Source: Microbacterium sp. zg-Y625 | Lineage (GTDB): Bacteria > Actinomycetota > Actinomycetes > Actinomycetales > Microbacteriaceae | Length of the DNA: 64,000 nt | Assembly (NCBI RefSeq): GCF_030246925.1 | Contig: NZ_CP126740.1 | Location: 1,364,001 to 1,428,000, forward strand | Direction: 5' to 3' | Shown: positions 39,594-39,743 of the stretch, piece after piece | How positions within the stretch are numbered: position 1 is the first letter of the stretch | How the letters are laid out: the number at the start of each line of letters is the position of its first letter | The notes under the pieces: model-generated | Databases searched by the model: none | Seen by the model: the letters and a program-made list of their open reading frames with translations, nothing else | Told to the model about the DNA's origin: nothing | Translations under genes and position numbers: made by a program

Positions 39594-39639
39594 AGGAACT
39601 TCTCCAGAGGGTGGCTCGGAACGTTGAGTGCTCAGCTTC

Positions 39640-39654
39640 GGGCGCTCGGCGCCC
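39640..39654 (-). other. Hairpin between the thrS leader ORF and thrS
   Basis: GGGCGC and GCGCCC form a perfect 6-bp stem with a 3-base loop, eight bases after the stop codon of the leader ORF. No T-run follows, so it is either a weak intrinsic terminator or part of a larger alternative structure. Confidence 0.5.
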
Positions 39655-39661
39655 TGCCCGC

Positions 39662-39730
39662 TCAGGCCTGAAGCGTTCGCGTGCCGGTGGCCGCGACGAC
39701 GTTCGCAGCGGTCGTCCGGCTCAGTTCCAT
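39662..39730 (-). CDS. Candidate threonine-rich leader peptide of thrS
   Basis: A 22-codon ORF begins at an ATG seven bases after a TAGAAT box and ends with TGA 68 bases before the thrS GTG. The peptide begins MELSRTTAANVVAATGTRTL and has threonine at positions 6, 7, 15, 17 and 19, that is 5 of 22 residues. A leaderless, cognate-amino-acid-rich ORF in front of a synthetase gene is the layout of ribosome-mediated attenuation: low Thr-tRNA would stall the ribosome and change the downstream fold. The antiterminator is not evident by eye, so the mechanism remains inferred. Confidence 0.6.
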   Translation of the reverse strand: MELSRTTAANVVAATGTRTLQA

Positions 39731-39737
39731 GGGCACG

Positions 39738-39743
39738 ATTCTA
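39738..39743 (-). promoter_or_regulatory. -10 box of the thrS leader transcript
   Basis: TAGAAT on the minus strand ends seven bases before the ATG of the leader ORF and places the transcription start at that ATG or within a base or two of it. Confidence 0.6.

What the first reader, a model, noticed from the sequence alone, without database searches (positions are those of the whole stretch)
39594..39743. Leaderless, threonine-rich leader ORF upstream of thrS
The sequence shows a TAGAAT box, then an ATG seven bases later opening a 22-codon ORF in which 5 residues are threonine (positions 6, 7, 15, 17, 19). A stop follows, then a 6-bp GC hairpin, then the thrS ribosome site and GTG. Established knowledge: ribosome-mediated attenuation uses leader peptides rich in the regulated amino acid, whereas Gram-positive thrS genes are usually under T-box control; no T-box features are present here. 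Inference: starvation for charged Thr-tRNA stalls the ribosome on the leader and releases thrS (and the coupled Ap4A phosphorylase) from attenuation. The terminator lacks a T-run, so control might act on translation initiation instead. I do not know of this arrangement being described for thrS.
Basis: partly seen in the sequence, partly recalled or inferred. Interest (0 to 1): 0.78.

Follow-up and report, generated by a model that had tools for sequence, protein, structure and literature searches.

The report
Microbacterium thrS leader-peptide regulatory RNA
In front of the gene for threonyl-tRNA synthetase this bacterium carries a tiny gene, apparently read from the very first base of the message and followed by a conserved RNA hairpin; many relatives keep the same arrangement, so it is very probably a real control element, though how it works is unproven.

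Summary
In detail: TAGAAT, ATG 7 nt later, a 22-codon ORF with Thr at 6, 7, 15, 17, 19, a 6-bp GC hairpin, then thrS. It is conserved: a model of its 3' half hits 144 of 366 genomes of the genus (Microbacterium, inferred), once each, always upstream of thrS, and no other genus sampled. In 131 distinct leaders the ORF (14-28 codons) starts 6-7 nt after TANNNT and ends Arg(CGA)-Thr(ACG/ACT)-x-x-Ala(GCC)-TGA. The hairpin covaries. So a translated leader acting with an RNA element is well supported. No U-tract; ribosome-blocked folding shows no mean change in thrS ribosome-site access. I favour ribosome-position-dependent control centred on one CGA-Thr codon pair, output step unknown. A leaderless thrS leader peptide was already reported in Streptomyces lividans (PMC8079986, passages); this looks like a distinct variant.

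The parts
39738..39743 (-). -10 box TAGAAT of the leader promoter; 7 nt to the ATG, so the transcript is predicted to begin at the A of the ATG
   Evidence: sequence; TANNNT 6-7 nt before the start in 131 of 131 distinct leaders (the script demanded a box 4-10 nt away); no conserved -35
39662..39730 (-). leader ORF, 22 codons, MELSRTTAANVVAATGTRTLQA*
   Evidence: in frame in the relatives, 14-28 codons
39674..39679 (-). invariant codon pair CGA-ACG (Arg-Thr), proposed stall site
   Evidence: CGA 131 of 131, ACG 109 / ACT 22 of 131; 150 of 150 loci of 144 genomes
39656..39667 (-). conserved GCCTGAGCGGGC over the stop codon; could form a small hairpin H1 (GCC with GGC)
   Evidence: 123 of 123 cores, only the T of TGA changing (to C) in 2; H1 mean probability only 0.16 in folds of the whole leader
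39640..39654 (-). hairpin P2, GGGCGC-CGA-GCGCCC
   Evidence: each of six pairs standard in 120-122 of 123 cores, with G-C/A-T, G-C/C-G and other exchanges; also on 27 sequences
39631..39639 (-). conserved tail GAAGCTGAG
   Evidence: GNAGCTGA in 122 of 122 nine-base tails, partly demanded by the script; one further core has an extra A
39602..39605 (-). GGAG ribosome-binding site of thrS
   Evidence: sequence
37584..39593 (-). thrS, threonyl-tRNA synthetase, the presumed controlled gene
   Evidence: Pfam

Best explanation
A cis-acting regulatory leader of thrS in Microbacterium. Transcription starts at the ATG of a short ORF (inferred from the -10 spacing), which is translated without a Shine-Dalgarno site. 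The ribosome reads a conserved rare Arg codon (CGA) followed by a Thr codon (ACG or ACT) that lies a fixed distance before an invariant RNA element: GCCTGAGCGGGC over the stop codon (possible hairpin H1), the covarying hairpin P2 and the tail GAAGCTGA. With CGA in the P site and the Thr codon empty, the usual footprint (recalled) reaches just past GCC, so it would prevent H1 but leave P2 and the tail free; a ribosome at the stop would melt P2. When charged Thr-tRNA is short (too little ThrRS or threonine) the ribosome waits at this pair, the element folds differently, and thrS is expressed more. Shown: conservation, reading frame, covariation of P2, linkage to thrS. Inferred: start site, translation, stalling, direction of the response. 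Unknown: the output step; a change in transcript elongation or survival by a signal without U-tract is slightly favoured over masking of the ribosome site.
For: 144 of 366 genomes of the genus carry one match each, all upstream of thrS. 131 distinct leaders: in-frame ORF in 11 length classes, ATG or GTG start at fixed spacing, RTxxA end; the 5 loci that the script dropped also have an in-frame ORF with Arg-Thr near its end. Two genomes moved the stop two codons upstream (TGA to CGA) and kept CGAACG, the spacing and GAGCGGGC (L208, L209), so codon pair and RNA element are kept apart from the stop. CGA is 28 of 1012 Arg codons (2.8%) in 19 thrS genes but invariant here. P2 covaries. In genome contigs and viral contigs 49 of 128 stretches with the short motif have the full core, and exactly those 49 hold thrS. 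Modelling: a ribosome at CGA abolishes H1 (0.16 to 0) and leaves P2 (0.64 to 0.51); one at the stop abolishes P2 (0.05).
Against: Upstream codons change equally at positions 1, 2, 3 (294, 268, 278 differences in 197 close pairs). Seven of 131 leaders have one Thr only. Thr is not the most enriched residue. In folds of the whole leader H1 and the alternative P1 are minor even without a ribosome (0.16 and 0.15); in the isolated core H1+P2 and P1+P2 are near equal (-15.4, -15.1 kcal/mol) and the 2:4 alternative is weak (-6.8), so no clear competing structure. No terminator and no -35. 57 of 131 leaders have a second -10-like TAGCCT after the element that would bypass it. 222 of 366 genomes of the genus had no match. 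No expression data.
Confidence: 0.65

Rival explanations
1. Classical ribosome-mediated attenuation: stalling on several Thr codons prevents a terminator hairpin (P2) or frees the thrS ribosome site.
For: Thr codons at -4 (131), -6 (98), -13 (60) and -8 (51) of 131 leaders; hairpin right after the stop.
Against: No U-tract; a stalled ribosome in the model leaves P2 formed; mean access of the thrS ribosome site 0.337, 0.347, 0.316 without ribosome, stalled, at stop; on stalling it rose by over 0.1 in 16 and fell by over 0.1 in 13 of 131; single-Thr leaders persist.
Confidence: 0.22
2. The conserved RNA element binds a protein, for instance ThrRS itself (feedback as in E. coli thrS, recalled) or a nuclease, and the ribosome only gates access to it.
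For: Sequence-invariant flanks around a covarying stem look like a recognition site; H1 and P2 alone do not explain the invariance.
Against: Likeness to a tRNA-Thr arm was not tested; a pure feedback site would not need CGA-ACK in frame with a start codon.
Confidence: 0.25
3. Not a sensor: the leader ORF merely loads ribosomes or protects the 5' end, and the core is a structural RNA without threonine specificity.
For: No codon-position bias upstream; Ile, Glu, Val and Ala also enriched; short leader genes raising expression by reinitiation are proposed for Actinobacteria (PMC4833913, passages).
Against: Stop-to-start distance is 64-111 nt in the 68 leaders where the thrS start was aligned exactly, beyond the 10-11 bp peak of that proposal; an invariant Thr codon and strict thrS linkage.
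Confidence: 0.15
4. A DNA-level operator or promoter element rather than RNA.
For: Lies between two -10-like boxes in 57 of 131 leaders.
Against: P2 arms covary and the ORF is in frame.
Confidence: 0.04

Closest known systems
thrL-thrS leader of Streptomyces lividans (PMC8079986; passages)
   Same: leaderless short ORF with Thr codons before thrS, one hairpin, no uridine-rich stretch
Leader peptides before leuS, trpS, alaS and amino-acid operons of Actinobacteria (PMC1262725, text parts 1-2 of 3; PMC8079986, passages)
   Same: leader ORF before an aminoacyl-tRNA synthetase, often leaderless, some without terminators
   Different: several of those have runs of the sensed codon; here one invariant sensor codon after a rare CGA plus an invariant RNA core. 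PMC1262725 reports no conserved element for threonine operons
LEU element before actinobacterial leuA (PMC1262725)
   Same: leader ORF joined to a conserved RNA structure without terminator, mechanism unsettled
   Different: there the leucine codon run is proposed to pair with the Shine-Dalgarno box; no conserved partner of CGAAC found here
Leaderless polycysteine ORFs of mycobacteria (recalled; translation attenuation of cysteine genes in M. smegmatis is mentioned in PMC13236596, passage)
   Same: uORF sensing an amino acid
   Different: ribosome-site masking, not supported by the folding model here
T-box; E. coli thrS operator (both recalled)
   Same: controls of thrS elsewhere
   Different: no T-box match; operator likeness untested

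Membership tests
ribosome-mediated transcription attenuator | leader ORF with codons of the regulated amino acid | tested here: met
   in-frame leader with an invariant Thr codon in 131 of 131 distinct leaders; that it is translated is not shown
ribosome-mediated transcription attenuator | intrinsic terminator with U-tract | tested here: not met
   none found in 39500-39900; tail is GAAGCTGAG
ribosome-mediated transcription attenuator | two exclusive structures switched by ribosome position | tested here: inconclusive
   H1+P2 and P1+P2 near equal in energy in the core, H1 and P1 both minor in the whole leader; invariant positions cannot covary
translational attenuator (ribosome-site masking) | ribosome position changes access of the downstream ribosome site | tested here: not met
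   0.337 / 0.347 / 0.316 mean unpaired in 131 leaders; folding model with an assumed footprint only
T-box | match to the T-box covariance model | tested here: not met
   at gathering threshold only four tRNAs found in the window
S. lividans thrL | same peptide or RNA core | tested here: not met
   published peptide lacks Arg-Thr-x-x-Ala; model R1 found no match outside the genus in the samples searched
E. coli-type thrS operator bound by ThrRS | tRNA-Thr-like arms bound by ThrRS | not tested
   needs a binding assay

The most novel reading that the evidence does not exclude
A genus-specific class of translation-gated regulatory RNA in which one rare-codon/sensor-codon pair (CGA-ACK) at a fixed distance before an invariant RNA element, not a run of sensor codons, reads Thr-tRNA charging, and the output is neither an intrinsic terminator nor ribosome-site masking.
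Probability: 0.3. Interest if true: 0.72.

Novelty: new variant of a known kind. Interest (0 to 1): 0.52.

Why it matters
It would extend leader-peptide control of aminoacyl-tRNA synthetases in Actinobacteria to a genus with 366 sampled genomes, and offers a compact, testable case where sensing may rest on one invariant codon pair. Over a hundred natural variants, and relatives without the element, make the output step open to direct test.

Tried and rejected
Intrinsic terminator: none. T-box or other Rfam family: none at gathering threshold. Unusually stable leader: no. Ribosome-site masking: no mean modelled change. A conserved partner for CGAAC: only 11 of 131 leaders have GTTYG between ORF start and thrS. 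Pairing of the ORF start with the stretch after the tail: 52 of 131 against a shuffled mean of 35 and maximum of 45; could be kinship, not used. 2:4 alternative helix: too weak. Fewer Thr where a second -10 box exists: mean 3.44 (57 leaders) against 4.07 (74), kinship not removed. Leader ORFs in other genera: of 38 family loci looked at (87 of 90 genomes had thrS) one had a boxed short ORF, without Thr; of 29 loci of the class search (112 of 118 genomes had thrS) two had one, with 2 and 1 Thr and no core.

Limits: searches used stricter filters and can miss weak copies. The rows are those that model R1 finds, and the script demanded TGAGC, GNAGCTGA and a boxed in-frame start, so these parts are invariant partly by construction; 5 of 150 loci failed it and are shown. 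CGAAC was not demanded by that script, but is in R1. Of 31 first-sample loci without the leader none has CGAACK-N6-GCC or the tail; 2 have GAGCGGGC. The 131 leaders are related (32 clusters). The tree (69 rows, 57 labelled; L045 too short, L210 unlabelled though it has the leader) needs at least 6 gains or losses; well-supported branches force 3.

Literature: searches listed no report of a Microbacterium thrS leader; subscription papers are mostly not held. Read: PMC8079986, PMC13236596, PMC4046766, PMC4833913, PMC2965389 as passages; PMC1262725 text parts 1 and 2 of 3. Recalled, from no call: E. coli thrS operator, mycobacterial polycysteine work, ribosome footprint size.

Full report
The observation. 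On the minus strand lie TAGAAT (39743-39738), seven bases, ATG at 39730, a 22-codon ORF to 39662, a GC hairpin at 39654-39640 and, 68 nt after the stop, the GTG of thrS. thrS is identified by Pfam; a HIT-domain frame runs across its end. In the whole window, both strands, only two ATG/GTG ORFs of 10-40 codons stand 6-7 nt after a TANNNT box; the other has no Thr, and 0 of 20000 Markov resamples of the region gave such an ORF with five Thr. Rfam finds only tRNAs; the leader is not unusually stable; a consensus scan finds neither a full promoter nor a terminator.

Conservation. thrS was found in 59 of 59 sampled genomes of the genus. I fetched 58 of these loci first; 27 carry the leader, and a 28th genome (G030, L210) was fetched later. 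A covariance model of the 3' half (R1, from 27 sequences) matched 144 of 366 genomes of the genus, one match each, but only own-genus genomes in a family sample (2 of 249) and an order sample (4 of 248). All 144 were read: 145 loci passed the script and 5 more (L177, L189, L206, L208, L209) were looked at singly; 6 of the 150 loci are second fetches of the same genome. All 150 have CGAACK-N6-GCCYGAGCGGGC upstream of thrS.

The ORF. In 131 distinct leaders the start (117 ATG, 14 GTG) lies 6 or 7 nt after TANNNT, the length takes 11 values from 14 to 28 codons, and the last codons are CGA (131), ACG (109) or ACT (22), two variable codons, GCC (131), TGA. The script demanded TGAGC, a tail and a boxed in-frame start, so the rows it dropped matter: L177 keeps an in-frame ORF of 24 codons but has lost the last T of its box; L189 and L206 (22 and 23 codons) differ in tail or hairpin; L208 and L209 (20 codons each) have the stop two codons earlier, CGA in place of TGA, with CGAACG, its spacing and GAGCGGGC kept. 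CGA is 28 of 1012 Arg codons in 19 thrS genes. No -35 hexamer is conserved.

Threonine. Thr counts run from 1 (7 leaders) to 7 (2) of 131. Thr stands at codon -4 in 131, at -6 in 98, at -13 in 60, at -8 in 51. Outside the last seven codons, 32 dissimilar representatives have 47 Thr in 468 codons against 25 in shuffles (0 of 1000 as high) and 22 and 25 in the other frames; but Ile (0.034 against 0.013), Glu (0.045 against 0.019), Val (0.109 against 0.048) and Ala (0.199 against 0.128) are enriched as well. In 197 close pairs the differences fall evenly on codon positions (294, 268, 278). So the frame and the terminal Arg-Thr pair are kept, while the rest of the peptide drifts with a moderate Thr surplus.

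The RNA element. In 123 distinct cores (118 from the script plus the 5 others) CGAAC, GCC and GAGCGGGC never vary, nor does GNAGCTGA in 122 nine-base tails, which the script partly demanded; the six pairs of P2, which it did not, are standard in 120-122 of 123 with G-C, A-T and C-G exchanges (also on 27 sequences). In the isolated core the flanks could pair in two ways of near-equal energy: H1+P2 (-15.4 kcal/mol mean) or P1+P2 (-15.1), P1 pairing AGC with the tail's GCT; a third helix is weak (-6.8). In folds of the whole leader H1 and P1 are minor (0.16, 0.15). Invariant positions give no covariation, so this switch is a proposal. CGAAC has no conserved partner (11 of 131 with GTTYG) and its two A are mostly unpaired.

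Mechanism. With CGA in the P site the downstream GCC falls at +13 to +15 of the ribosome, the usual edge of its footprint (recalled). Folding 131 leaders with an assumed footprint blocked removes H1, keeps P2 (0.64 to 0.51) and leaves mean thrS ribosome-site access unchanged (0.337 to 0.347; up by over 0.1 in 16, down in 13); a ribosome at the stop removes P2 (0.05) and gives 0.316. There is no U-tract. I therefore favour ribosome-position-dependent folding read out by something other than an intrinsic terminator or ribosome-site masking: assisted termination, pausing or decay. Shown: conservation, frame, covariation, linkage. Inferred: start site, translation, stalling, direction. Unknown: output.

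Evolution and bypass. On a tree of N-terminal ThrS (69 rows, 57 labelled) the label needs at least 6 changes, 18.9-19.1 if shuffled; one old gain with repeated losses fits but is not shown. In 57 of 131 leaders TAGCCT lies between the tail and thrS, and many relatives without the leader show a like box there (by eye); the window's species lacks TAGCCT, so its thrS may depend wholly on the leader promoter.

Prior work. S. lividans has a leaderless thrL before thrS with one hairpin and no uridine-rich stretch (PMC8079986, passages). PMC1262725 (text parts 1-2 of 3) found leader peptides for trp, leu, ilv, cys, leuS and trpS in Actinobacteria and no conserved element for threonine operons. I count this as a new variant of a known kind.

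Noticed in passing
L208 and L209, upstream of thrS: Two genomes moved the leader stop two codons upstream and changed TGA to CGA while keeping CGAACG, its spacing and GAGCGGGC.
   Followed up: partly
57 of 131 leaders, between tail and thrS; absent in window 39594-39630: A second -10-like TAGCCT after the element would give a promoter that bypasses the leader.
   Followed up: partly
L091, L093, L094, L096, L101, L106, L119: In several other genera of the family thrS itself seems to start 6-7 nt after a TANNNT box, so its own mRNA may be leaderless.
   Followed up: no
window 39763-40923 (+): A divergent CitMHS/ArsB-type transporter gene starts 33 bp from the leader ATG, so the two promoters are very close.
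   Followed up: no
   Followed up: partly
131 leaders, ORF start against the stretch after the tail: Five bases of the ORF start are complementary to the stretch around the thrS ribosome site in 52 of 131, shuffled mean 35, maximum 45.
   Followed up: partly
window 43203-43724: tRNA cluster Val-Cys-Gly and a divergent tRNA-Val.
   Followed up: no
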